Assembly: GCA_001804865.1 (NCBI GenBank)
Contig: MHBK01000008.1
Location: 1-64,000, forward strand
Reading direction: 5' to 3'
DNA from: Lentisphaerae bacterium GWF2_57_35
GTDB taxonomy: Bacteria; Verrucomicrobiota; Kiritimatiellia; CAIQIC01; GWF2-57-35
DNA length: 64,000 nucleotides
Both the position numbers and the translations under genes were made by a program. This document shows positions 14,781-35,903 of this stretch, one piece after another (the first letter of the stretch is position 1; each line of letters starts with the position of its first letter). The notes below the pieces were generated by a model. It was not told the DNA's origin. It was given only the letters and a program-made list of their open reading frames with translations, and searched no databases.

Positions 14781-15172
14781 GAAAACTCCTTGTTGAAAAC
14801 CGCCACAACAAAACCGGATGTATTGATACGGTTTATCATTCAGAAAGTCAAGATTGATTGATGCTGCTTATCATATACCCGCGATCGCCTCTCCGGATCG
14901 CGATGACGGACGACCTGAGATAGGATCGCCAAGCACCATCCCTTAATATTTTGCATTTATTTCACTTTTTCATCTTGAACGTTTAGAAATTTCTAAATAA
15001 ACTCAATCGACAGCGCGCTAGTATGCCTCTAGTTCACTATTGGCATACGAATTAAGTCCAAAACAGCAACGAAAGGAGGTGTTGAGGGTCGAGTTGTAAT
15101 CGTAAGAAGCGAATCCACAAGGGGAAGTCGGACTTGTCCGATTCCATTGAACATCAAAATAAGGGGAAAGTT
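14781..15172. other. Divergent promoter region between two secreted-protein genes
   Basis: 392 bases separate the start codons of the beta-helix protein (leftward) and the FG-GAP protein (rightward). The region holds the 16-bp perfect palindrome at 14982-14997. It also holds an isolated perfect Shine-Dalgarno sequence AAAGGAGGTG at 15073-15082, about 90 bases before the chosen start codon and followed by no usable long frame. No RNA gene is recognised. Confidence 0.55.
14982..14997. promoter_or_regulatory. Perfect 16-bp palindrome, possible operator
   Basis: TTTAGAAATTTCTAAA is a perfect dyad between divergent genes, in an AT-rich block with T-rich and A-rich flanks. Its position suits a repressor or activator shared by both genes. 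The protein that would bind it is unknown. Confidence 0.45.
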
Positions 15173-18100
15173 GTGAAGTTAAATATAACGTTTCTGCGCA
15201 AGATGTGCGTTGTCGCGATGCTGGGAGCCCTGAGTGGGGTTCCTGCGCGCGGTCAAGCTCCGGCCCCGGCGGCCGGATGGCCGGTATGGGTCGAGAATAT
15301 TGAAGGAGTCAGCAATGCTTTTCACAAGCCTTATGTGAGCGTTGCGAACGCGGCGGGCGGCAGCCGACGGGTTGTTGTGGCCTTGGGTACGAGTATCAGC
15401 GTGTATAGCGCCACCGGTTCTTTGCTGAATCAATGGGAAGTGGGAGCCGATCCGCTCTACTACCCCATTACCGCCGTCGACCTGGACGGGAACAACACGG
15501 ACGAGTTGGTTACGAACATGCAGTTGGATGGGACCAACGGCGGCTTGTTCTATGCGTACAGCTTGGAGGGCGCCTTGCCCATGGGCTGGCCGGCAAGAAT
15601 CCCCCTCCCCCCGGGCGGAGAGTATGCGCGGAGTTGTTCTCCGATCGTTGTGGACGAACGCGACTACCCTCAATACAAAGGTCTCGTCGCGAATGCCTGC
15701 AATCGCTACGCGGACGGGGTGAACAGCACCTACCTCTGCCTGCTCAATCCGGATGGCCAGGTGCAAGAAGGATGGCCGATCGCATTGGACGCCGACCTGC
15801 CCGCTTCGGATCTGCTGAATCGGATGGCTCCGTCCGTGAATGACGATCATGAGGCATCCTTCTACTTCGCCACCGAACAATATGGTCTGGGGATATTCAA
15901 CTCCTTCGGCTATCCACAGATCATGGGAGATCCGCCTCAAATCGAAGATATCGGCGTTTCCGTGGCCCTTGGCGACATCGACAACGACAGCGATGCGGTG
16001 GGTTACTTCAGCGATCGAGAAATCGTCGTGGGAGGATCGGACGGACATGTCTATGCCTACGATGTCCTCGGCGAATATTGGAACCGCCTGCTGCTCCCGG
16101 TCCCTGGCTGGCCCATCACCGTCGACCGCAGCGATGTGAACGAGATTGCCTTGGCGGATTTGGATGGCGATCTCGATTTGGAAATCGTCTTCACGGCGGA
16201 ATACGCGTTGCCCGGGGGAACGGAAGGCGACGAGAAGCTGTACGCCTATCACCATGACGCCACGCCCGTGGCGGGTTGGCCTCAAAGCTTGGGCGGCGGC
16301 ATGCACCATAACGCACCGGTGGTTGCCGATGTGAACGGCGACGGCGCTCCCGAAATCGTGGTTTGCAGGGGCGAGAACGGCATTGCGGCCTTCAGCGCCG
16401 CCGGCAACTTGCTCTGGGAAGTGAGCATGGGCGCCAATGCCAAGGGCGGCAATCGGTTGGTGCTGGACGACGTGGACGGCGACGGCTTGCTGGAACTGCT
16501 CGCCGGCGACGATCTGGGGTATGTTTACGTGTGGAATCTGACCGGCCCGTACAAACCTCATTTGCTGAACTGGCCCTGCTACAAGCATGATGGACACTTC
16601 ACTGGACGTCAGCGCACGGCAGGGGCGCCGCCCAGCATCATGTACCCGCCGCAGGATGCCACGCTCTATAAGGGCGAATACTACAACGCCTTTTTTGAGG
16701 CCATGAATCCGGATGCCGATCCAATAACGCTCACGGCGTCAGGCGTTCCCGCCGGCGCTTCGTGTATTGTCGACAATAATGACACGATTCTTCCCTACGG
16801 AAACTTCTACTGGATTCCGGCCTCCGATCAGGCCGGCGTCTATCCGATCACGTTCACGGCCTCAGATGGTCTGTTTTCCACCTCCCATACCGCCGTGGTC
16901 ACAGTGCTGAATCGCACGCCAGTCCTGGAACCCATCACCAACTACACGATCAACCTGGACGAATCGTGCTGGCCTCCCGAATTGTGTCAGGTCAGCTTGA
17001 ACATAACGGCCATGGACGACGACAACGATGTACTGACCTTTGGGGTTTCGCCGCTGCCGGACGGAGCGTACTTGTCGGCCAACGCATATTCGCCCATACC
17101 GGGCATGCCGTATCCCCAAACCGTGTATTTCTTATGGAGGCCGACTACGGAGCAAGCAGGCGATCACGTGTTGACCTTCTCCGCCTCGGACGGGGACGTC
17201 ACCGTATATCAAACGATGACGGTGACGGTGGCGACTCCCAACGAAGCGCCGGTGTTGAATCCGATCGGCAACCAGTTCGTCGCGGAAGGCAGCGCGTTGA
17301 CGTTCTCGGCTACCGGGTTCGATCCCGACGGCCAAGCGTTGTTCTTCAACGCCGCGCCGCTGCCCTCGGGCTCGTCCTTCACCACCAACGGAATGTTCTC
17401 CTGGTCCCCGTCCTATGCCCAGGCCGGCGTCTACACCGTGACCTTCACGGTTTCCGACGGCGCGGCGCAGGACGCCGAGACCATTACGATCACTGTCGCC
17501 GATGTAAACCAAGCGCCCGTGCTGAACGCGATCGGCAACCAGTCCGTCGCGGAAGGCAGTGCGTTGACGTTCTCGGCTACCGGGTCCGATCCCGACGGCC
17601 AGGCGTTGTTCTTCAACGCCGCGCCGCTGCCCTCGGGCGCGTCGTTCACCACCAACGGAACGTTCTACTGGTCCCCGTCCTATGCCCAAGCCGGCGTCTA
17701 CACCGTGACCTTCACGGTTTCCGACGGCGCGGCGCAGGACGCCGAGACCATTACGATCACCGTCGCCAATGTGAACCAAGCGCCCGTGCTGAATCCGATC
17801 GGCAACCAGTCCGTCGCGGAAGGCAGTGCGTTGACGTTCTCGGCTACCGGGTCCGATCCCGACGGCCAGGCGTTGATCTACAGCGCCACATCGTTGCCCT
17901 CGGGCGCGATGCTTGCCACCAACGGAACCTTCACCTGGACGCCGACGTCGAGCCAAGTGGGGACTCATACGGTCACCATCGCCTGTTCCGACGGGACCGC
18001 TACGGACTCGGAGACGATCGTCATCACGGTGAGCAGCGTCAATCATGCCCCGGTCCTCAATACGATCGGCAGCAAGAGCGTGCGTCGCACGAAGCTGTTG

Positions 18101-18307
18101 AGCTTCACCGTTTCCGGATCCGATCCGGACGGCGACAGCCTCACATACAGCGCCTCGCCTCTGCCTGCGGGCGCGACCTTCGTCAACCGTACGTTCTCGT
18201 GGAGGCCGACCTCGTCCCAGGTGGGCTATCACTACGTGACCTTTACGGTCCGCGACAACCGCGGCGGAACGGATTCGGAAACCGTTCGCATCAGAGTGAC
18301 GCGGTAG
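15173..18307 (+). CDS. Secreted FG-GAP/VCBS protein with tandem Ig-like repeats
   Basis: A 1044-residue exported protein. Start GTG 15173 has GGGGAAA upstream and opens a signal peptide (TFLRKMCVVAMLGALSGVPARG). Residues 50-470 are FG-GAP/VCBS-like propeller blades with calcium loops (AVDLDGNNTDE, LADLDGDLDLE, VADVNGDGAPE). Residues 500-690 are two diverged Ig-like modules. From residue 690 come four He_PIG-type modules of 89 residues each (NxAPVLNxIGNQxVAEGSAL...SDGxAxDxETITITV) on an exact 267-base period, starting at 17240, 17507, 17774 and 18041. The first three are nearly identical in DNA. Adhesion or surface display is likely. A terminator follows the stop. Confidence 0.9.
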   Translation: MKLNITFLRKMCVVAMLGALSGVPARGQAPAPAAGWPVWVENIEGVSNAFHKPYVSVANAAGGSRRVVVALGTSISVYSATGSLLNQWEVGADPLYYPITAVDLDGNNTDELVTNMQLDGTNGGLFYAYSLEGALPMGWPARIPLPPGGEYARSCSPIVVDERDYPQYKGLVANACNRYADGVNSTYLCLLNPDGQVQEGWPIALDADLPASDLLNRMAPSVNDDHEASFYFATEQYGLGIFNSFGYPQIMGDPPQIEDIGVSVALGDIDNDSDAVGYFSDREIVVGGSDGHVYAYDVLGEYWNRLLLPVPGWPITVDRSDVNEIALADLDGDLDLEIVFTAEYALPGGTEGDEKLYAYHHDATPVAGWPQSLGGGMHHNAPVVADVNGDGAPEIVVCRGENGIAAFSAAGNLLWEVSMGANAKGGNRLVLDDVDGDGLLELLAGDDLGYVYVWNLTGPYKPHLLNWPCYKHDGHFTGRQRTAGAPPSIMYPPQDATLYKGEYYNAFFEAMNPDADPITLTASGVPAGASCIVDNNDTILPYGNFYWIPASDQAGVYPITFTASDGLFSTSHTAVVTVLNRTPVLEPITNYTINLDESCWPPELCQVSLNITAMDDDNDVLTFGVSPLPDGAYLSANAYSPIPGMPYPQTVYFLWRPTTEQAGDHVLTFSASDGDVTVYQTMTVTVATPNEAPVLNPIGNQFVAEGSALTFSATGFDPDGQALFFNAAPLPSGSSFTTNGMFSWSPSYAQAGVYTVTFTVSDGAAQDAETITITVADVNQAPVLNAIGNQSVAEGSALTFSATGSDPDGQALFFNAAPLPSGASFTTNGTFYWSPSYAQAGVYTVTFTVSDGAAQDAETITITVANVNQAPVLNPIGNQSVAEGSALTFSATGSDPDGQALIYSATSLPSGAMLATNGTFTWTPTSSQVGTHTVTIACSDGTATDSETIVITVSSVNHAPVLNTIGSKSVRRTKLLSFTVSGSDPDGDSLTYSASPLPAGATFVNRTFSWRPTSSQVGYHYVTFTVRDNRGGTDSETVRIRVTR
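17240..18307 (+). repeat. Four in-frame 267-bp tandem repeats
   Basis: Units begin at 17240, 17507, 17774 and 18041 with AAC/AAT coding Asn before the APVLN block. The first three are almost identical at the DNA level apart from scattered changes. The fourth has drifted (SKSVRRTKLLSF instead of NQSVAEGSALTF). Recent unequal crossing-over or array expansion is implied. Confidence 0.9.
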
Positions 18308-18342: not shown

Positions 18343-18377
18343 GGGCGCCCCGACAAGTTCGGGGCGTCCTTTTTTTT
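18343..18377 (+). terminator. Rho-independent terminator
   Basis: Stem GGGCGCCCCG (18343-18352) pairs with CGGGGCGTCC (18360-18369) around 7 bases, followed by eight T (18370-18377). It lies 35 bases after the FG-GAP protein gene. Confidence 0.9.
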
Positions 18378-18571
18378 CGATCGGCGGAAACAAGCCGCGA
18401 GGCTAAGGTTTGTAGGTGAATTTTCTAATAACCACTTCCACCTCTTTGCCGAAGGCGGATTTGGACGCGGCGCTCAGCCAGAGATTCATTCGCAGGGTCG
18501 ACGACGCTTGGCATATGAATAAAAGAATCCACGTCCTTACGGACGCGGCTACGTAGCCGCCGGCGTAAGCC
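18378..18571 (-). other. Degenerate coding remnant and GC-rich hairpins
   Basis: On the minus strand a frame ending at 18403 finishes with SAFGKEVEVVIRKFTYKP, which looks like a true protein tail. It is cut off upstream by the repeat region, and no family can be assigned. Bases 18528-18570 contain short perfect stems (GTCCTTACGGAC and GGCTACGTAGCC). Confidence 0.3.
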
Positions 18572-18854
18572 CTGTCTTTTATACACAGATTGATGGCACG
18601 GAATTCATCTGTAAGCATGAGAAGGGCTGGCTTCTGTAGGTGGGCCGCGTTCTCCCTGCCCGCAACGTGGCGTAGCCATGTAGGCGGGCGTAACGCGGCT
18701 TCAGGACCCGAAGAGCCCGTCTTCGCCCGCCTGTGCATCGCTACGCGAAGCGTTGCGGGCAGGGAGAAGCCGGGCCACCTGTTGTTTCACCAGAATAGTT
18801 TCATCCGAAGGCCTTGCAGAAAATGACTGCCTCAAATCTGTGTATAAAAGACAG
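18572..18854. mobile_element. Mini-element A with Tn5-like terminal inverted repeats
   Basis: It is bounded by CTGTCTTTTATACACAGATT (18572-18591) and its exact reverse complement (18835-18854). The outer 16 bases differ at one position from the Tn5/IS50 mosaic-end sequence. A 10-bp direct repeat GGCGTAAGCC flanks it (18562-18571 and 18855-18864), as expected for target duplication by an IS4/Tn5-type transposase. It is 283 bp, codes for nothing and carries the palindrome 18651-18768. It looks like a non-autonomous MITE; no matching transposase is in the window. Confidence 0.65.
18651..18768. repeat. Imperfect palindrome, family P3
   Basis: The left arm 18651-18690 starts TCTCCCTGCCCGCAACG. 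The right arm 18724-18768 ends CGTTGCGGGCAGGGAGA. They pair over about 40 bases with gaps. A related single arm occurs at 62316-62356, next to the entericidin gene. It lies entirely inside mini-element A. Confidence 0.55.
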
Positions 18855-18863
18855 GGCGTAAGC

Positions 18864-19112
18864 CTGTCTCTTATACACAGATTTCATTTAAGGATGATCT
18901 GTAACAACTTCCATTCCAGGAACAGGATATACATGGCGATGAAAGGATCACGCAGTCCAAATATTCCTTTATCCGTGGGACGCTTTGCCATCCGTGGGGC
19001 TACTTCTTCTCCTAAAAGAGTGGCCCCACGGATGGCAAAGCTTCCCACGGATAAGGAATGAGGACTCGTTTGAATGCCGGACTCTCTTGGAGAATCTGTG
19101 TATAAAAGACAG
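18864..19112. mobile_element. Mini-element B with Tn5-like terminal inverted repeats
   Basis: It is bounded by CTGTCTCTTATACACAGATT (18864-18883) and AATCTGTGTATAAAAGACAG (19093-19112), with one mismatch. It begins on the last base of the direct repeat that closes mini-element A, so the two are directly abutted. It is 249 bp and carries a full P1 palindrome plus about 70 bases homologous to the region beside the second full P1 copy (26348-26430). It is non-coding or a decayed cargo. Confidence 0.55.
18969..19054. repeat. Palindromic repeat, family P1, full copy
   Basis: Arms of 32 bases (18969-19000 starting TTATCCGTGGGACG, 19023-19054 ending TCCCACGGATAA) surround a 22-base loop. It is nearly identical to 26272-26357 and partly present at 2217-2286. 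This copy lies within mini-element B. Confidence 0.8.
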
Positions 19113-19262: not shown

Positions 19263-22200
19263 TCACGGCGCCATTTCGACGCGGACGCGATGGAACAGAA
19301 TATCCGTGGCGGCGTTGGTGAAGCTCATGATGCCGCCCGTGCCGGACAAGTCGATGAAGCCCGGCGCGAGGGTCCAGCCCCCTGCCAGGACATTGGTGGA
19401 GAGGCTGACGGAATAGAGTCGTCCGATTTCGCTGGGCCAGCGGATCATGATGTGGTCGCTGCTCGCGCTGCCGATGGGATTGACGGCGAAGTAGCTTGCC
19501 GCATTCGTCGGATCGGTGCCGGTGACGTATTCCTGCCACGAGAGCATGCCGTCGAAATCCTGATCGGCGAGTTCCGCGACGGCAAACGACGGATTGGTCA
19601 GCCCGTAGGACGCCAGCCACCAAAGCGGCGTTCGATACGGCGCCAGATCGGGCGAGAAGAGACCTTCAATGGTGCGCGGCTGATCCATGGGCAGGAGCAG
19701 TTGGTTGGTCGAAACGACCGTGGAGCCATTCGTTTCGCCGGTCCAGCCCGTGAAATACCAATACGGATCGTTGTTGGCCGTTACCAGCAAGGTGGACCCC
19801 ACACTATACCAACCGCTGGCTGGAACGAAACTGCCGCGGGGAGGAAGGGCCTCAACCGCGAAATAATTCTGCGTCTGCCAATTCCACATGATCGAGGAAT
19901 CGTTCGTTATGGAAAACACGCCGGTCGTCACGCTGACGCCGGACGCCGGAACGCTGCCGGAGCCGGTCCAGCCCGAACAGACGAATTTGCTGCGCCCCCG
20001 CAGCAGCGGCGAGTTGGTCAGGCGGCATTCGATCGCGCTGTTCCATGTGTAGGAGGACAAACCCATCGGCGGATCGCTCCGAGCGAACGTCAGATCGCTG
20101 CCGATCAGGAGGGACACGGGGGCAATGTCGAACACGGTGTGCAGGGTGTGGTCTTCGATGACGTTGGTAAACGCGTAAACGCCGTCGGCCGGTACGTAGA
20201 GGCCGTCGACGATCATATACGCCACCATGCAATGGGTTGAGGGTTCGTTGGTGAAGACGATGCCGGCGCCGGGATTCACCCAATTGGTGCCGGACGGGAC
20301 CACCTGTCCGTTTTGCGAGGACGTGGCGACGATCCGGCACGGGTTGGTGCTGAAGGTGGCGACGATGGATCGGGGTTGGTCCATGGACAGCGTGATGCGC
20401 GACGAGTTCGACTGGGCCGAGGGCACATCGCCCTGCCAGCCGCCGAAGCGGAAACCCGGCGTTATGGGCGTGGCCGTGATGACGAGGTTGGAGCCGTCGT
20501 TAAACCAACCGTTGACTTGATCGACGGTTCCATTGGTTCCCTCGACCGCCACGTCCAGATAGTATTGCGTGCGCCAATTCCAGGCAACTTCGGTATTCGT
20601 AGTCAGCGTGAAAAAGCCCGTGCTTTGCGCCGTTCCCGAGGTCGGGACGCTGCCGGAGCCCGTCCACCCCAGCAACAGATAGCGCGAGAAGCCGTCCAAA
20701 ACGAGCGTTTCCTCGACGTAACAAGCCATATTGCTCCCCCGCAATAGCGCATAGACGCCGTTGGACGGAACGACCGCGCCGTGGGCGCTTTCGATGGTCA
20801 GGTCGTAGAGGTCCGGCTCGAACGAAACGCTGATCGTATGATCCGCGTTTACCGTCGCAAACGCATACGAGGACGGGCTTCCGCTCGATACGCCGTCAAC
20901 GATGACTTCATCCACGCGATAGTTGGTGGCGGGAGACATGGTGAAAGAGGCCGTCGCCCCCGGAATCACCGGAATCACCCCCGAAGGATCGATCGTTCCA
21001 TTGTCGCCGGCGGTGGCCGTAATGAGGCAATAGTTGGTGCTGAACTCGGCCTGAACCGAGCGGGCCGCATTCATGGTCAGCGTGAGGGGATTTTGCGTCA
21101 ATTGATTCGACGGCACAGCCCCCGCCCATTGCACGAAACGTGCGTCGACATTCGGCTGCGCCCGCAGGATAACGCTCGTGCCGGCGGTCGTCCAGGCGCT
21201 GTTGACGTCCACGGTGCCATAGGAGGTATACGAGACGGAAAGCCAGTATTGCGTCTGCCAGTTCCAAGCGATGCCGGATTGATTGGTGATTACAAAATAT
21301 CCGCTATTCGTGGTCAAACCTGCTGCTGGCACACAGCCGTAACCGGTCCAGCCCCGGCAGACATATTGGGTTTGGCCATTGACCACCGGCGAATTGGTGG
21401 CCATGCAGACGATATTGCTCCCCGCGACATACACGTTCGTTCCCGGCGGAGGCGAAACCATCGCAAGGGAACTGGCCACCACCAGGTCGTAAACATCCAA
21501 CGTGAATTCCGCACGAATGGAATGGTCGTTGATCACCTGTGTGAACACGTAGAGATTGGTGAGCGCAACCGCGGCGCCATCCACCACGATGTTGGTTAAT
21601 CGGTATCCCGGATCGGGCGTCATCACAAAGGTGGAATTGTTGCCGGGCAAAACGCTCACGACGCCGCTGGGAGAAATGACCCCTCCTCCACCGGCGGAGG
21701 CGGAAATGAAACACCGGTTCGTGCTGAAATGAGCCATTACGGAACGAGCCTGATCCATGGTCAGGACCAAGGGGTTCTGATTGGTTTGTGTGGTCGGCAC
21801 ATCCCCGGTCCACTTGTGAAACCGGTAATCGCTGTTGGGAATGGCCGTGATCGTCGCGTTGGTGGCGGCCTCGAACCAGGCATTGTTGACGTCGACGGTT
21901 CCGTTCGGCCCATTCGCCGTTTGCAGCCAATACTGGCTGTGCCAGTTCCAGGTCAGCGTGGAATTGGTGGCGATCGTAAAACTGACGTTGAGCGTCGTGC
22001 CGCTGGCCGGAACGCTGCCGCCGCCGGTCCAACCGCGACAGACAAACTGCGTCAGGCTGTCGCCTACCGGGGAAGTCGTCACGCTCGCAACAACATTGCT
22101 CATCGACGCCAAAGTCCAGATCCCGGTGGCGGGATCCGTGACGCCATGATCGCTGACCATCGTCAGCGTGTAGGTATCCAGCTCGAACGCCGCCTGAATG

Positions 22201-25200
22201 GTCCGGTTGCTGCGCACATTCGCAAAGGAATATTGCCCTACGCGCCCGATCGACACTTGGTCCACTTGAACGGTCGATACCCGATAGCCGGCATCCGGAA
22301 CGATCAGGAAATTCGTGCTGCCGCCGTAAACCAACGTTACCTCGCCGGAGGGAGCAATGACTCCATTCGGCCCCGCCGTAGCTGTGATGATGGGCCGGTT
22401 GCTAGCAAAATTCGCCGTCAAGCTGCGCGCCTGATCCATGAGGACAGCCAGCGGATTGGCGTTCGACTGCCCCAAGGGCACATCGCCGGACCAATGGCTG
22501 AACCAATAATTCGAGACCGGGGTTGGAACGATCGTAGCGCCCGCCCCCGCCAGATACCAATTGTTGCTGAGATTGACGCTGCCGTTGGTGGCCTCCAGCG
22601 TCAAATAGTACTGCGTCTGCCATTTCCAAATCACCGTGGAATCGTTGGTCACCACAAAGGGGCCGGTATTGGTTTCCAAGCCGGCATGCGGAGCGCTTCC
22701 GGAACCCGTCCAGCCCAGGCACATCAACTGCGTACCGCCGTCAATAATCGGAGAGCCGGCCACCGCACACGTCTGCGTCGAATAATTGGGGACAGAATAA
22801 ATCCCGGCCGCCGGAATGGGCGTGCCGTAGGCGCTGCCGATCAGCAACCGGTATTGATCGCTAGCGAAGGAAGCGCTGATGCTGTGATCCGTGATTACAT
22901 TGGTAAAGGCGAGATAGGATATCGCGTAGGGATTGGTGACCGCCACGGATTGGCCGTCAACCGTGAGGGCTTCGATCCGATATCCGGCGGACGCAGAAAC
23001 CGTGAAGGAGGTCGAGCCGCCGGGTTGAACATAGACGGTTCCCGTCGGAGCGATGCCCCCACCCGCTGCGGAGGAGGCGGAAATCCGGCACAGATTCGTG
23101 CTAAACTGCGCCGTCACGTAGCGGGCCCGATCCATGCTCATGCCCATGGGATTGTCGTTGGTGCGATGACCGGGAACATCGCCGATCCACCCCGCAAAGC
23201 GATATCCGTTGGACGGCGTCGCGGTCAGAGTCACCTGGGTTCCATCGTCCCGCCATTGGCTGGCCATGTCGACCGTGCCGTTCGAAGCCGACACCTCGAG
23301 CCAGTACTGGATCTTCCAATGCCAGGAAACCGACGATTCCTCCCAGATCGTAAACGACCCGGTGTTGGTGTCGCTTCCGAAAGGCGGCGCATTGCCGGTT
23401 CCGGTCCAACCGGTGCAAATGACGCGTTGCGTCACTCCATTCAAAATCGGCGAGCCGGCGATCGTGCAGGCCACCGCGTCGCCTCCCGAATACTCGTTCG
23501 TGCCCACAGGAGACGGCGAACCATACGAACTGTCTATATACAGATAATAAGAATCCGGTTCGAAGGCGGCTTCCAACAGATGATTGCTGCGTACATTCAT
23601 AAAACTCTGCATGTTGCCGAGGCCGTTGAATACGCCGTCGATGTAAACCGCAGCCACCCGGTAACCCGTCGCAGGAAGAAGCTCGAAGGACCGGCTCGCA
23701 CCATAGGCCACTTGCACGCGTCCGGTAGCCTCGCCGGTCGGATAAATGGTTCCGTTCGTGCCGGGAATCGTGGTAATGGTATAGACCAACGGACTGAACT
23801 GGGCCCGGACGGCGCGAGGGCCGTCATTAGTCAGGATCAGCGGGTTGTTGTTCGTCTGCGTAGCGGCCACATCGCCGGACCAGCCGGAGAAAAAGTAACC
23901 GATCGCCGGACCCGCCAGGACGCTCGTAACCGAACCGGAGGTTTTCCAGCCGGCAGCCACGCCGACCAATCCGTTGGAATTCTGCGGGGCGATATCCAGA
24001 TAGTATTGGGTTTCCCATAGCCAGGCGATCGACGTGTCGTTCGTCAGAATAAAAACGCCGGTATTGGTGGCCGTGCCGGCCGAAATGACGCTCCCCGCCC
24101 CCGTCCACCCTCGGCACACGTATTGGGTAGTCGCCTCAGCAATCGAATTGGTCAGGCTGATTCCGGCCAAACGGCGGCCAGCCGGATAGATCAAGGTTCC
24201 CACAGGCGCGGACACCGAATCGTACGTCCCGTACTGATCCTGATTTTTCCACCACTTGATCGTATCCAAATCATAGGACGCGCCTACGATATCCAGGCGG
24301 CCGTCATTATTAAGTTCGACCACATCGACGGCCACGGCACGGGGAAACAAAGGATCGATCGTGCGAAACGTCCAGTTGGCGCCGCTTCCGTCGTTTTCCC
24401 ACCACGCCAGATTCGTCGCGGTGTTATACGAAACCGCCACCAGGTCCACGAAGCCATTGCCATCCATGTCGGCAGCTTTGACGGCATAGGCGTAATCGAA
24501 ATTGGACGCCACCACATGCCGAACCCAACTGTTGCCGCTTCCGTCGTTCTGCCACCAGACGATATCGTCCTGAAGAGACGGGCCATTGTAGGCCGCGGCG
24601 ATAATATCCAGCTTCTGATCGCCATTGAGATCGGCGGTTTGAACGCAACGTACGCTGCGAACGCCGCCGGCCAGGGCATGTTTCGTCCAATTGGAGCCCG
24701 ATCCATCGTTGGCCCACCAAGCCATATTGTTGGCCATATCCGTGCTGTAGGCTCCGGCAATCACGTCCAGAGCGCCGTTCGTATCGATATCCGCTATGCA
24801 AACCGACATGGCGTTGGTGAAAGAATAAATGACGTTCTTCGTCCAGTTCGACGCCGACCCGTCATTCAGCCAGCAGGAAACCTCGTTCCGAGCGTAGGAT
24901 GCCGCCACGACGTCCGGCGATCCGTTCCCATCCAAATCGGCCGCCGCCGCCGATTGCCCGTTCGAAAAGGACGGCAGATTAATCCGCGACCACCCGCTGC
25001 CCCCTCCTCCATTAAGCCAACAGGACACGCCATCCGAGCCCGCGCCCAACACATCGACGGAGCCGTTCGTATTCAAGTCGACGGCAAAAACACTGCGAGG
25101 CAAAGCAAAGTTGGTAACGATGGGATTTTCAAGCCAATCGGAGCCGTTGTACTTCCACCAGGAAATGCGCGAGGCAAGATTTGCCGCCCCTATTACGTCG

Positions 25201-25478
25201 TTGGAGCCATCCTGGTCCAAGTCAGCCGCCGTTACCGAAAAGGCGCCATCCGCATAGCCCCCCGCCACCGTCGCCTCGACAAACTGCAACCCCACCCGTG
25301 AAATCGCCGAGCGGCCATATTGATTGGAAACCGTGACATTGAACGACACGGCTTGCGAAACGACCAGTCCCCCCAGCCAAAAAAACGTAAAAAACGCTGT
25401 GTTTCTGAAGAAATCGGCAAACCGCCCCCGAGCGACGATCCACCGCCGATGAGCCCACTTGTTATTATTCATACGCAT
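19263..25478 (-). CDS. Giant secreted FG-GAP / InlB-type-repeat protein
   Basis: A 2071-residue exported protein. A basic N-terminus is followed by the hydrophobic segment NTAFFTFFWLGGLVVSQA as signal. Residues 55-410 contain repeated FG-GAP/VCBS blades with Asp/Asn loops (AADLDQDGSNDVIGA, AVDLNTNGSVDVLGA). From residue 420 to about 1945 seven units of about 230 residues follow. Each has a QxVCxGWTGxGxxP block, a (Q)YxLxxxxxNGTV block with GWxGDVP...DxAR, and a second GxIxPxG...AGYR block, as in divergent InlB B-repeats; the last unit lacks the second half. An EF-hand-like DQDFDGMLSWQEY and the RWPSEIGRLYSVSLSTNVL module close the protein. Likely an adhesin or sheath component. No clear ribosome site is seen before ATG 25478. 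Confidence 0.88.
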   Translation of the reverse strand: MRMNNNKWAHRRWIVARGRFADFFRNTAFFTFFWLGGLVVSQAVSFNVTVSNQYGRSAISRVGLQFVEATVAGGYADGAFSVTAADLDQDGSNDVIGAANLASRISWWKYNGSDWLENPIVTNFALPRSVFAVDLNTNGSVDVLGAGSDGVSCWLNGGGGSGWSRINLPSFSNGQSAAAADLDGNGSPDVVAASYARNEVSCWLNDGSASNWTKNVIYSFTNAMSVCIADIDTNGALDVIAGAYSTDMANNMAWWANDGSGSNWTKHALAGGVRSVRCVQTADLNGDQKLDIIAAAYNGPSLQDDIVWWQNDGSGNSWVRHVVASNFDYAYAVKAADMDGNGFVDLVAVSYNTATNLAWWENDGSGANWTFRTIDPLFPRAVAVDVVELNNDGRLDIVGASYDLDTIKWWKNQDQYGTYDSVSAPVGTLIYPAGRRLAGISLTNSIAEATTQYVCRGWTGAGSVISAGTATNTGVFILTNDTSIAWLWETQYYLDIAPQNSNGLVGVAAGWKTSGSVTSVLAGPAIGYFFSGWSGDVAATQTNNNPLILTNDGPRAVRAQFSPLVYTITTIPGTNGTIYPTGEATGRVQVAYGASRSFELLPATGYRVAAVYIDGVFNGLGNMQSFMNVRSNHLLEAAFEPDSYYLYIDSSYGSPSPVGTNEYSGGDAVACTIAGSPILNGVTQRVICTGWTGTGNAPPFGSDTNTGSFTIWEESSVSWHWKIQYWLEVSASNGTVDMASQWRDDGTQVTLTATPSNGYRFAGWIGDVPGHRTNDNPMGMSMDRARYVTAQFSTNLCRISASSAAGGGIAPTGTVYVQPGGSTSFTVSASAGYRIEALTVDGQSVAVTNPYAISYLAFTNVITDHSISASFASDQYRLLIGSAYGTPIPAAGIYSVPNYSTQTCAVAGSPIIDGGTQLMCLGWTGSGSAPHAGLETNTGPFVVTNDSTVIWKWQTQYYLTLEATNGSVNLSNNWYLAGAGATIVPTPVSNYWFSHWSGDVPLGQSNANPLAVLMDQARSLTANFASNRPIITATAGPNGVIAPSGEVTLVYGGSTNFLIVPDAGYRVSTVQVDQVSIGRVGQYSFANVRSNRTIQAAFELDTYTLTMVSDHGVTDPATGIWTLASMSNVVASVTTSPVGDSLTQFVCRGWTGGGSVPASGTTLNVSFTIATNSTLTWNWHSQYWLQTANGPNGTVDVNNAWFEAATNATITAIPNSDYRFHKWTGDVPTTQTNQNPLVLTMDQARSVMAHFSTNRCFISASAGGGGVISPSGVVSVLPGNNSTFVMTPDPGYRLTNIVVDGAAVALTNLYVFTQVINDHSIRAEFTLDVYDLVVASSLAMVSPPPGTNVYVAGSNIVCMATNSPVVNGQTQYVCRGWTGYGCVPAAGLTTNSGYFVITNQSGIAWNWQTQYWLSVSYTSYGTVDVNSAWTTAGTSVILRAQPNVDARFVQWAGAVPSNQLTQNPLTLTMNAARSVQAEFSTNYCLITATAGDNGTIDPSGVIPVIPGATASFTMSPATNYRVDEVIVDGVSSGSPSSYAFATVNADHTISVSFEPDLYDLTIESAHGAVVPSNGVYALLRGSNMACYVEETLVLDGFSRYLLLGWTGSGSVPTSGTAQSTGFFTLTTNTEVAWNWRTQYYLDVAVEGTNGTVDQVNGWFNDGSNLVITATPITPGFRFGGWQGDVPSAQSNSSRITLSMDQPRSIVATFSTNPCRIVATSSQNGQVVPSGTNWVNPGAGIVFTNEPSTHCMVAYMIVDGLYVPADGVYAFTNVIEDHTLHTVFDIAPVSLLIGSDLTFARSDPPMGLSSYTWNSAIECRLTNSPLLRGRSKFVCSGWTGSGSVPASGVSVTTGVFSITNDSSIMWNWQTQNYFAVEALPPRGSFVPASGWYSVGSTLLVTANNDPYWYFTGWTGETNGSTVVSTNQLLLPMDQPRTIEGLFSPDLAPYRTPLWWLASYGLTNPSFAVAELADQDFDGMLSWQEYVTGTDPTNAASYFAVNPIGSASSDHIMIRWPSEIGRLYSVSLSTNVLAGGWTLAPGFIDLSGTGGIMSFTNAATDILFHRVRVEMAP

Positions 25479-35731: not shown

Positions 35732-35903
35732 GGGTGCATCCCGACACTGCCGCAGAAAACACGTATCTGGGGATAAACTGGCCAGTGACGGTTGGAGGCG
35801 GGGCCACATGGCCCCGCTGCCGGGGCGAGGTCGCCCCAGCTCCATTTTGTAAGCCCGATCCTTATTGAACGGAATGAATCTGCGGCAGTGTCGAGATGCG
35901 CCC
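35732..35903. repeat. 172-bp segment with 24-bp inverted ends
   Basis: The 24 bases at 35732-35755 (ending CCCGACACTGCCGCAG) and 35880-35903 (beginning CTGCGGCAGTGTCGAG) are inverted copies with two mismatches. Inside is a strong hairpin (GGGGCCACATGGCCCC) and no gene. It may be a small MITE, or a structured 3' end of the CopB-type gene. Confidence 0.5.

What the first reader, a model, noticed from the sequence alone, without database searches (positions are those of the whole stretch)
18562..18864. Mini-element A: Tn5-like ends with 10-bp direct repeats
Perfect 20-bp terminal inverted repeats starting CTGTCTTTTATACACAG, close to the IS50/Tn5 mosaic end, enclose 263 non-coding bases. GGCGTAAGCC is duplicated exactly at both sides. 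This is the mark of transposition by an IS4/Tn5-type enzyme, and the element is too small to code for one.
Basis: partly seen in the sequence, partly recalled or inferred. Interest (0 to 1): 0.55.

Follow-up and report, generated by a model that had tools for sequence, protein, structure and literature searches.

The report
Tn5-like mini-transposon inside a hairpin repeat
A 283-base stretch of non-coding DNA is a real miniature transposon with Tn5-like ends, one of dozens in this bacterial genome, and the family often lands in the exact middle of small palindromes found in other repeated sequences.

Summary
Element A (18572-18854, 283 bp) has perfect 20-bp Tn5/IS50-like inverted ends and an exact 10-bp duplication, GGCGTAAGCC. 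A second element, B, starts at 18864. The genome holds 99 such ends against 1 for a reversed-motif control. Of 30 paired mini-elements, 10 have exact 9-10 bp duplications. Empty sites exist: the target core CCGGCGTAAGCCGG occurs intact 68 times, control 0. The ends are not sequencing adapters.

Self-complementarity of the bases next to 111 ends peaks sharply at 10 bp (0.51 versus 0.26). A sits in a remnant of R1, elsewhere a 135-140 bp miniature element.

No Tn5-type transposase was found in this assembly. Similar ends accompany Tn5-type transposases elsewhere: apparently DruA-fused in a Verrucomicrobia draft, unfused in Ktedonobacter. The Ktedonobacter copies also sit in palindromes, some beside IscB-type or TnpB genes.

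Best reading: a non-autonomous element moved in trans by a Tn5/IS50-type transposase that prefers palindrome centres. Precedent exists (ISRm22, PMC1525189). It is a new variant of a known kind.

The parts
18562..18571 (.). left 10-bp target duplication GGCGTAAGCC
   Evidence: read directly; exact repeat at 18855-18864
18572..18591 (+). left 20-bp terminal inverted repeat of element A
18572..18854 (+). mini-element A, 283 bp, non-coding
   Evidence: aligns end to end with 7 other genomic copies
18638..18780 (+). internal hairpin of A, arms 18638-18667 and 18751-18780 (90% complementary)
   Evidence: whole element folds far better than shuffles, z -11.7
18835..18854 (-). right 20-bp terminal inverted repeat of element A
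18855..18864 (.). right 10-bp target duplication GGCGTAAGCC; its last base is the first base of element B
18523..18571 (+). remnant of repeat R1 (elsewhere a 135-140 bp miniature element); A follows the left half of its CCGGCGTAAGCCGG palindrome; R1's outer left end and its right half were not found here
18864..19112 (+). mini-element B, 249 bp, same kind of ends, no matching duplication at its borders
   Evidence: 80% and 86% identical to two other two-ended elements over about its whole length (C59 and C34)
18969..19054 (+). internal hairpin of B, arms 18969-19004 and 19019-19054 (94% complementary)
35785..35874 (+). uninterrupted copy of R2, the second preferred target repeat (an empty site in the same window), 96% identical to the query

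Best explanation
Element A is a miniature, non-autonomous transposon (a MITE) with Tn5/IS50-type ends. A Tn5-like transposase made elsewhere cut out such elements at the CTGTCT...AGACAG ends and joined them to staggered cuts 10 bp apart; host repair filled the gaps and left the 10-bp duplication. The enzyme did not choose targets at random: many insertions sit at the centre of symmetry of short palindromes, chiefly in two dispersed repeats, R1 and R2. Shown by sequence: the ends, the duplications, the copies, the empty sites, the palindrome-centred 10-bp target. Inferred: that the mobilising enzyme is of the Tn5/IS50 type and acts in trans. Unknown: which gene supplied it, whether the family still moves, and whether symmetric sequence or an extruded hairpin is what is recognised.
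For: Ends, duplication and interior. 99 ends in the genome versus 1 in the reversed control. 30 paired elements of 150-654 bp; 10 with an exact duplication, eight of 10 bp and two of 9 bp. Self-complementarity next to 111 ends is 0.51 at exactly 10 bp, against 0.24-0.30 at 8, 9 and 11 bp and 0.26 for shifted windows: this measures the duplication length independently of pairing the ends. 28 of 111 ends lie in R1 and 46 of 111 in R2-like sites, by a loose match of up to 3 mismatches. R1 core intact 68 times, control 0. 19 of 40 scored R2 matches stop at the dyad within 3 bp of a listed end (one search held). Elsewhere: Ktedonobacter elements with similar ends, Tn5-type genes and 9-11 bp duplications in palindromes; Ktedonosporobacter L248; JABGQM fragments L191 and L238.
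Against: No Tn5-type DNA-binding domain (PF14706), no DruA and no homologue of a fusion transposase was found in this assembly, so the mobiliser is unidentified. 46 of 111 ends have no opposite end (up to 4 mismatches) within 4 kb in the fetched stretch. 20 of the 30 paired elements lack an exact duplication. 37 of 111 ends lie at neither R1 nor R2. B has no duplication. Some insertions in R1 may be copies carried by R1's own movement, so independent events are fewer than the counts.
Confidence: 0.9

Rival explanations
1. The ends are Nextera/Tn5 sequencing-adapter sequence left in the assembly.
For: The adapter mosaic end (recalled: CTGTCTCTTATACACATCT) differs from some ends here by one or two bases.
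Against: Ends vary and continue into conserved family-specific DNA; many pair as inverted repeats at 150-654 bp, ten pairs with exact target duplications, inside contigs.
Confidence: 0.01
2. A is an internally deleted derivative of a DruA-Tn5 fusion element like the one inferred in Verrucomicrobia draft JABGQM, and such a fusion enzyme moved it.
For: JABGQM ends share the first 16-17 bases; a DruA N-terminal part lies just inside one end (L191) and a Tn5-type C-terminus just inside another (L238), and the two match the N- and C-terminal parts of the fusion L270 at 44% and 58% identity; its sites are palindromes too.
Against: The JABGQM family peaks at 8 bp, this one at 10 bp. No DruA hit in this genome (all 14 named control genomes were silent too, but the same model found 61 of 345 genomes of the class). 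The JABGQM fragments found nothing significant in the fetched own-genome loci; interiors were not compared at DNA level. The long open frames L266 and L270 show no such end motif within their loci.
Confidence: 0.25
3. The repeats are not transposed at all: R1, R2 and the mini-elements are patchwork repeats spread by recombination or by movement of R1, and the 10-bp repeats are part of the palindrome.
For: Target sequences are palindromic, elements are mosaics sharing ends and interiors in different combinations, R1 is mobile in its own right, B and 20 of 30 pairs lack an exact duplication.
Against: Uninterrupted R1 and R2 contain the 10-mer once; occupied copies with an exact duplication contain it twice. 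Members of the A family sit in unrelated targets with their own duplications: GCGAGTCGC, GCGAGGTCGC, and the imperfect GGTTTGGA(G/T)GG.
Confidence: 0.05

Closest known systems
Tn5 / IS50 (IS4 family, IS50 subgroup)
   Same: Terminal 19 bases fit the published IS50-subgroup end consensus CW------Y---CA-A--W- (PMC2266710, Table 1, passage seen); the target mostly begins with G and ends with C and is symmetric.
   Different: No gene; 10-bp rather than the published 8-9-bp duplication; insertion concentrated in defined palindromic repeats.
ISRm22 (IS4 family, IS4Sa subgroup)
   Same: All nine S. meliloti copies lie in REP palindromes; the consensus rebuilt from six has the insertion point at the axis of symmetry (PMC1525189, passages seen).
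   Different: Autonomous; another subgroup (PMC2266710, passages and section 7 seen); targets REPs, not R1/R2.
Bacterial MITEs (e.g. Chunjie, QMITE; review PMC10969869, passages seen for Tn5, IS50, palindrome)
   Same: Short, non-coding, inverted ends, target duplications, many copies.
   Different: Ends are of the Tn5/IS50 type; the passages that I saw in the review name no MITE with such ends.
DruA-Tn5 fusion transposases (this work: L266, L270; inferred for L191/L238)
   Same: JABGQM ends share 16-17 end bases and lie at palindromes.
   Different: Carry a fusion transposase (open frames of 729 aa, L270, and 735 aa, L266, the latter running to the contig end); JABGQM sites peak at 8 bp; no such ends seen around L266 and L270.

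Membership tests
MITE (miniature inverted-repeat transposable element) | terminal inverted repeats and a target-site duplication | tested here: met
   20-bp perfect repeats, exact 10-bp duplication
MITE (miniature inverted-repeat transposable element) | short and without a transposase gene | tested here: met
   283 bp; no ORF of 100 aa or more is contained in it
MITE (miniature inverted-repeat transposable element) | multiple copies at independent sites | tested here: met
   7 further end-to-end copies of A; 30 paired elements of the wider family
MITE (miniature inverted-repeat transposable element) | autonomous partner with the same ends in the same genome | tested here: inconclusive
   none found, but the assembly is 93% complete and several contigs end a few hundred bases inside an element
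IS4 family, IS50 subgroup | end consensus CW------Y---CA-A--W- | tested here: met
   family ends CTGTCTYTTATACACARAT held by eye against Table 1 of PMC2266710
IS4 family, IS50 subgroup | 8-9 bp target duplication | tested here: not met
   10 bp here (8 of 10 exact cases; two are 9 bp); about 10 bp fits the IS4 family as a whole (PMC2266710). So it is not filed as an IS50-subgroup member, only as working like one
IS4 family, IS50 subgroup | DDE transposase with YREK motif | not testable with these tools
   the element has no gene and its mobiliser is unidentified
REP/palindrome-targeting insertion sequences | insertion at a fixed point, the symmetry axis of a repeated palindrome | tested here: met
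   peak at 10 bp over 111 ends; R1 and R2 sites; 37 of 111 ends lie elsewhere
Tn5 sequencing-adapter artefact | identical adapter sequence at read or contig ends, no target duplication | tested here: not met
   variable ends, internal, paired, ten pairs with exact duplications

The most novel reading that the evidence does not exclude
A branch of Tn5/IS50-type transposons, spread over at least Verrucomicrobia-related bacteria and Chloroflexota, homes to the symmetry centre of hairpin-forming repeats, often the hairpins of other mobile elements: the R1 miniature element here, and palindromes beside IscB-type or TnpB genes in Ktedonobacter. The enzyme would recognise the two symmetric arms (CCCC-N13-GGGG in Ktedonobacter) rather than the centre, so that the duplication can vary from 9 to 11 bp, and one lineage has added a DruA domain.
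Probability: 0.4. Interest if true: 0.62.

Novelty: new variant of a known kind. Interest (0 to 1): 0.42.

Why it matters
Tn5 is the textbook and workhorse transposon, valued because it lands almost anywhere. Natural Tn5-like elements that land at palindrome centres would give a ready comparison for finding what sets target choice in this enzyme family, and a start for a Tn5-type enzyme with a defined landing site. They would also be a case of transposons using other transposons' hairpins as safe harbours. The DruA-Tn5 fusion ties a domain named from the anti-phage system Druantia to transposition.

Tried and rejected
Sequencing-adapter artefact: rejected. Mobiliser in the own genome: PF14706 none; DruA none; homologue of the 729-aa fusion only weak hits at E 0.2 and 0.66; local tblastn on the fetched own-genome loci gave one weak hit, E 0.55. 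The two PF01609 hits were not shown to belong: loci L033 and L034 hold no end motif. The 1159-bp element in L194 with these ends carries a 23S-rRNA-intervening-sequence protein gene; no transposase was seen in it. DruA in G044 (L275) is joined to another transposase type (DDE_Tnp_1_assoc). The fusion loci L266 and L270 show no Tn5-like end within the loci held, so the link of these ends to a DruA-Tn5 enzyme rests on the JABGQM fragments L191 and L238 and on L272 (a DruA frame with an end motif of 2 mismatches); no contig spans a whole such element.

Structure versus sequence: dealing right half-sites among sites did not separate the two within a genome (168 of 2000 shuffles reach the observed value for 10 sites here; 427 of 2000 for 15 Ktedonobacter sites); the pooled 29 sites exceed all 2000, but that can come from lineage differences alone. 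Endozoicomonadaceae ends (23 flanks) show no sharp peak, only 0.35-0.41 at 8-12 bp against 0.25. Eight gene neighbours of these ends were scanned: none is TnpB or IscB-type. No match of A+B in plasmids or phages, no exact 20-base end in viral contigs, no Rfam family over its gathering score in the window. The Rhodobacterales matches (5 loci) share nearly one flank and may be one conserved site; not used.

Rows dropped: one search was given 18 of the 30 own pairs and used the 10 with exact duplications (8 dropped); Ktedonobacter or related pairs L320, L322 and L333 have both ends but no matching duplication and were left out, L343 is a 230-bp pair and was left out, L346 and L347 repeat the loci of L344 and L337. 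One search dropped no end. The R1/R2 classes had no chance control of their own. Of the neighbours of the Ktedonobacter elements I scanned seven proteins, not all.

Full report
OBSERVATION. The sequence at 18562-18864 reads GGCGTAAGCC, then 283 bp that begin CTGTCTTTTATACACAGATT and end with its exact reverse complement, then GGCGTAAGCC. One base of the right-hand duplication, the C at 18864, is also the first base of a second element, B, 18864-19112, with ends of the same kind. With up to 3 mismatches the end motif occurs 4 times in the window against 0.01 expected from shuffles. Both elements fold strongly as single strands, z -11.7 and -12.4 against 200 shuffles each, because each holds a long internal hairpin besides its ends. 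They lie between two convergent large genes for what look like surface proteins (15134-18307 plus; 19263-25478 minus).

COPIES. The window is the first 64 kb of contig C8 of a 5.05-Mb draft in 74 contigs, 93% complete. With up to 3 mismatches the end CTGTCTCTTATACACAG occurs 99 times in it, and the same motif read backwards once. I fetched these places and searched for partners; with the slightly wider motif CTGTCTYTTATACACAR the fetched stretches hold 111 ends. Thirty pairs of inverted ends 150-654 bp apart were examined. Ten of the 30 have an exact duplication, eight of 10 bp and two of 9 bp. Seven other two-ended elements align with A from end to end, some shortened by internal deletions. 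Other elements are mosaics that share one end or part of the interior. 46 of the 111 ends have no opposite end within 4 kb in the fetched stretch; several of these stand a few hundred bases from a contig end, so assembly gaps and decay probably both contribute.

TARGET. The bases next to the ends are not random. For the 111 ends the share of self-complementary positions in the adjacent w bases is 0.24, 0.30, 0.51, 0.28 for w = 8, 9, 10, 11; shifted windows of 10 give 0.26. The peak at exactly 10 means that the duplicated 10 bp are centred on the symmetry axis of a palindrome. It also confirms the 10-bp duplication without pairing any ends. By the same of 111 ends lie in one repeat (R1, core CCGGCGTAAGCCGG), 46 of 111 in a second, looser class (R2, core GGGCGAGGTCGCCC and variants, up to 3 mismatches), and 37 in neither. 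R1's core is intact 68 times in the genome, control 0. A 90-base R1 query has 40 matches of 88-100% identity that run through the dyad, six of them exact and full-length; 32 further weak matches are such places read on the other strand (40 of 136 candidates were scored). These are the empty sites. R2 has 10 uninterrupted full-length matches, one of them in this window at 35785-35874, while 19 of the 40 scored matches stop at the dyad within 3 bp of a listed element end (one search held; 40 of 95 candidates were scored). Intact copies contain the 10-mer once, occupied copies with an exact duplication twice.

R1 IS ITSELF MOBILE. Of 30 R1 copies examined with their flanks, 25 have both outer ends recognisable; they are 135-140 bp long, end in nGGGTGCATCTTGA...TCAAGATGCACCCn, and 14 of the 25 stand between 6-7 bp direct repeats. 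A therefore sits in a piece of another miniature element. In the window only the piece at 18523-18571 is left: R1's outer left end and its right half were not found, and B follows A directly. The A-B junction is thus a later rearrangement or a second insertion whose history I could not reconstruct.

WHO MOVES IT. Nothing found in the assembly fits: no Tn5 DNA-binding domain, no DruA, no homologue of a DruA-Tn5 fusion. Of 96 genomes searched, the own and its nearest relatives, only the own and one other have the exact 16-base end; none of the others shares its genus or family. In the named genome collection the 17-base end was found in 98 stretches; some organisms have it in quantity, others once and probably by chance. 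In Verrucomicrobia draft JABGQM all 21 loci run off a contig inside the element, 19 of them within 80 bp, the sign of a multi-copy insertion sequence. Just inside one such end begins a DruA protein (L191); just inside another lies the C-terminus of a Tn5-type transposase (L238). These two fragments match the two ends of one fusion protein, L270, at 44% and 58% identity, so I infer a DruA-Tn5 fusion element there; no contig spans it. Long open frames that join DruA to Tn5 domains occur in two genomes of the class of the window's genome (L270, 729 aa; L266, 735 aa, open to the contig end); L270 matches Tn5 transposase structures (1mus, E 2e-36). Neither shows a Tn5-like end in the stretch held. 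JABGQM sites are palindromes too, with the peak at 8 bp, 0.59 against 0.24 over 20 flanks.

KTEDONOBACTER. Ktedonobacter sp. SOSP1-85 and K. racemifer (Chloroflexota) hold 1437-1486 bp elements with similar ends and Tn5-type transposase frames of 434-473 aa without DruA, some copies interrupted (PDB 1mus, E 2.7e-35 for L328). Fifteen sites (14 full-length elements and one 159-bp mini-element) with exact 9-11 bp duplications were examined; in 13 of 15 the empty site has CCCC and GGGG arms around the centre, and in 11 they can be set 13 bases apart, while the duplication varies from 9 to 11 bp. As background, CCCC-N13-GGGG occurs 7 times in 138.6 kb of loci of these bacteria. Some sites resemble each other, so they are not 15 independent draws. 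Of seven neighbouring proteins scanned, three have the RRXRR and HNH domains of IscB (L330, L332, L344; the name IscB is recalled) and lie within 10 bp of the insertion, and one is TnpB (L326), about 150 bp away. So at least some of these palindromes lie at the edge of genes for RNA-guided-type nucleases.

HOW IT WORKS. Best supported: cut-and-paste transposition in trans by a Tn5/IS50-type transposase that prefers symmetric sites. That the preferred site is a palindrome centre is shown; that an IS50-type enzyme does it is inferred from the ends, the duplication of about one helical turn and the relatives. DruA does not seem to be needed for palindrome choice, since the Ktedonobacter elements lack it. 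Whether the enzyme reads symmetric arms or an extruded hairpin is open: shuffling half-sites within one genome does not exceed chance (168 of 2000 and 427 of 2000).

WHAT IS KNOWN. PMC1525189 (passages seen) reports REP sequences as targets of insertion sequences, among them the IS4-family ISRm22, and recalls that Tn5 sites tend to be palindromic. PMC2266710 (passages and section 7 seen) gives the IS50-subgroup ends and 8-9 bp duplications, and reports conserved target arms for some elements of the IS4 subgroup and for ISRm22. Among the titles and abstract openings listed by my literature searches I saw no paper on MITEs with IS50-type ends or on DruA-Tn5 fusions; these are capped listings of an open-access library and do not show that none exists. 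The find is therefore a family that I could not match to a described one, and a new variant of a known kind, not a new kind.

Noticed in passing
G000, loci L286-L315: R1 is a separate 135-140 bp miniature element with nGGGTGCATCTTGA inverted ends; 14 of 25 copies with both ends stand between 6-7 bp direct repeats; at least 40 copies in the genome; its own transposase family was not identified.
   Followed up: partly
L266:1153-3357, L270:1258-3444; fragments L191:6-596, L238:6390-6770: The DruA domain, named from the Druantia anti-phage system, is joined to a Tn5-type transposase in Verrucomicrobia-related genomes; elsewhere in the class it is joined to another transposase type (L275, L279).
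   Followed up: partly
L330, L332, L344 (RRXRR + HNH, IscB-type), L326 (TnpB): Ktedonobacter Tn5-type insertion sequences sit in palindromes next to iscB-type or tnpB genes; they might interrupt the guide-RNA or end hairpins of those elements.
   Followed up: partly
L194:5375-6533: In Verrucomicrobia draft JABGOW a 1159-bp element with similar ends and an 8-bp duplication carries a gene for a 23S-rRNA-intervening-sequence protein, with no transposase seen.
   Followed up: no
window 18864-19112 and 18855-18864: Element B abuts A with one shared base and has no target duplication of its own; the right half of the R1 copy is missing. The order of events is unexplained.
   Followed up: partly
window 18344-18379: A G+C-rich hairpin followed by a run of T just after the gene 15134-18307 reads like an intrinsic terminator (seen by eye).
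   Followed up: no
Rhodobacterales loci L169, L176, L185, L200, L201: The exact 16-base end follows a palindrome of the type TGGCCGGGCCA in five loci with nearly the same flank; possibly one old conserved site rather than mobile copies.
   Followed up: no
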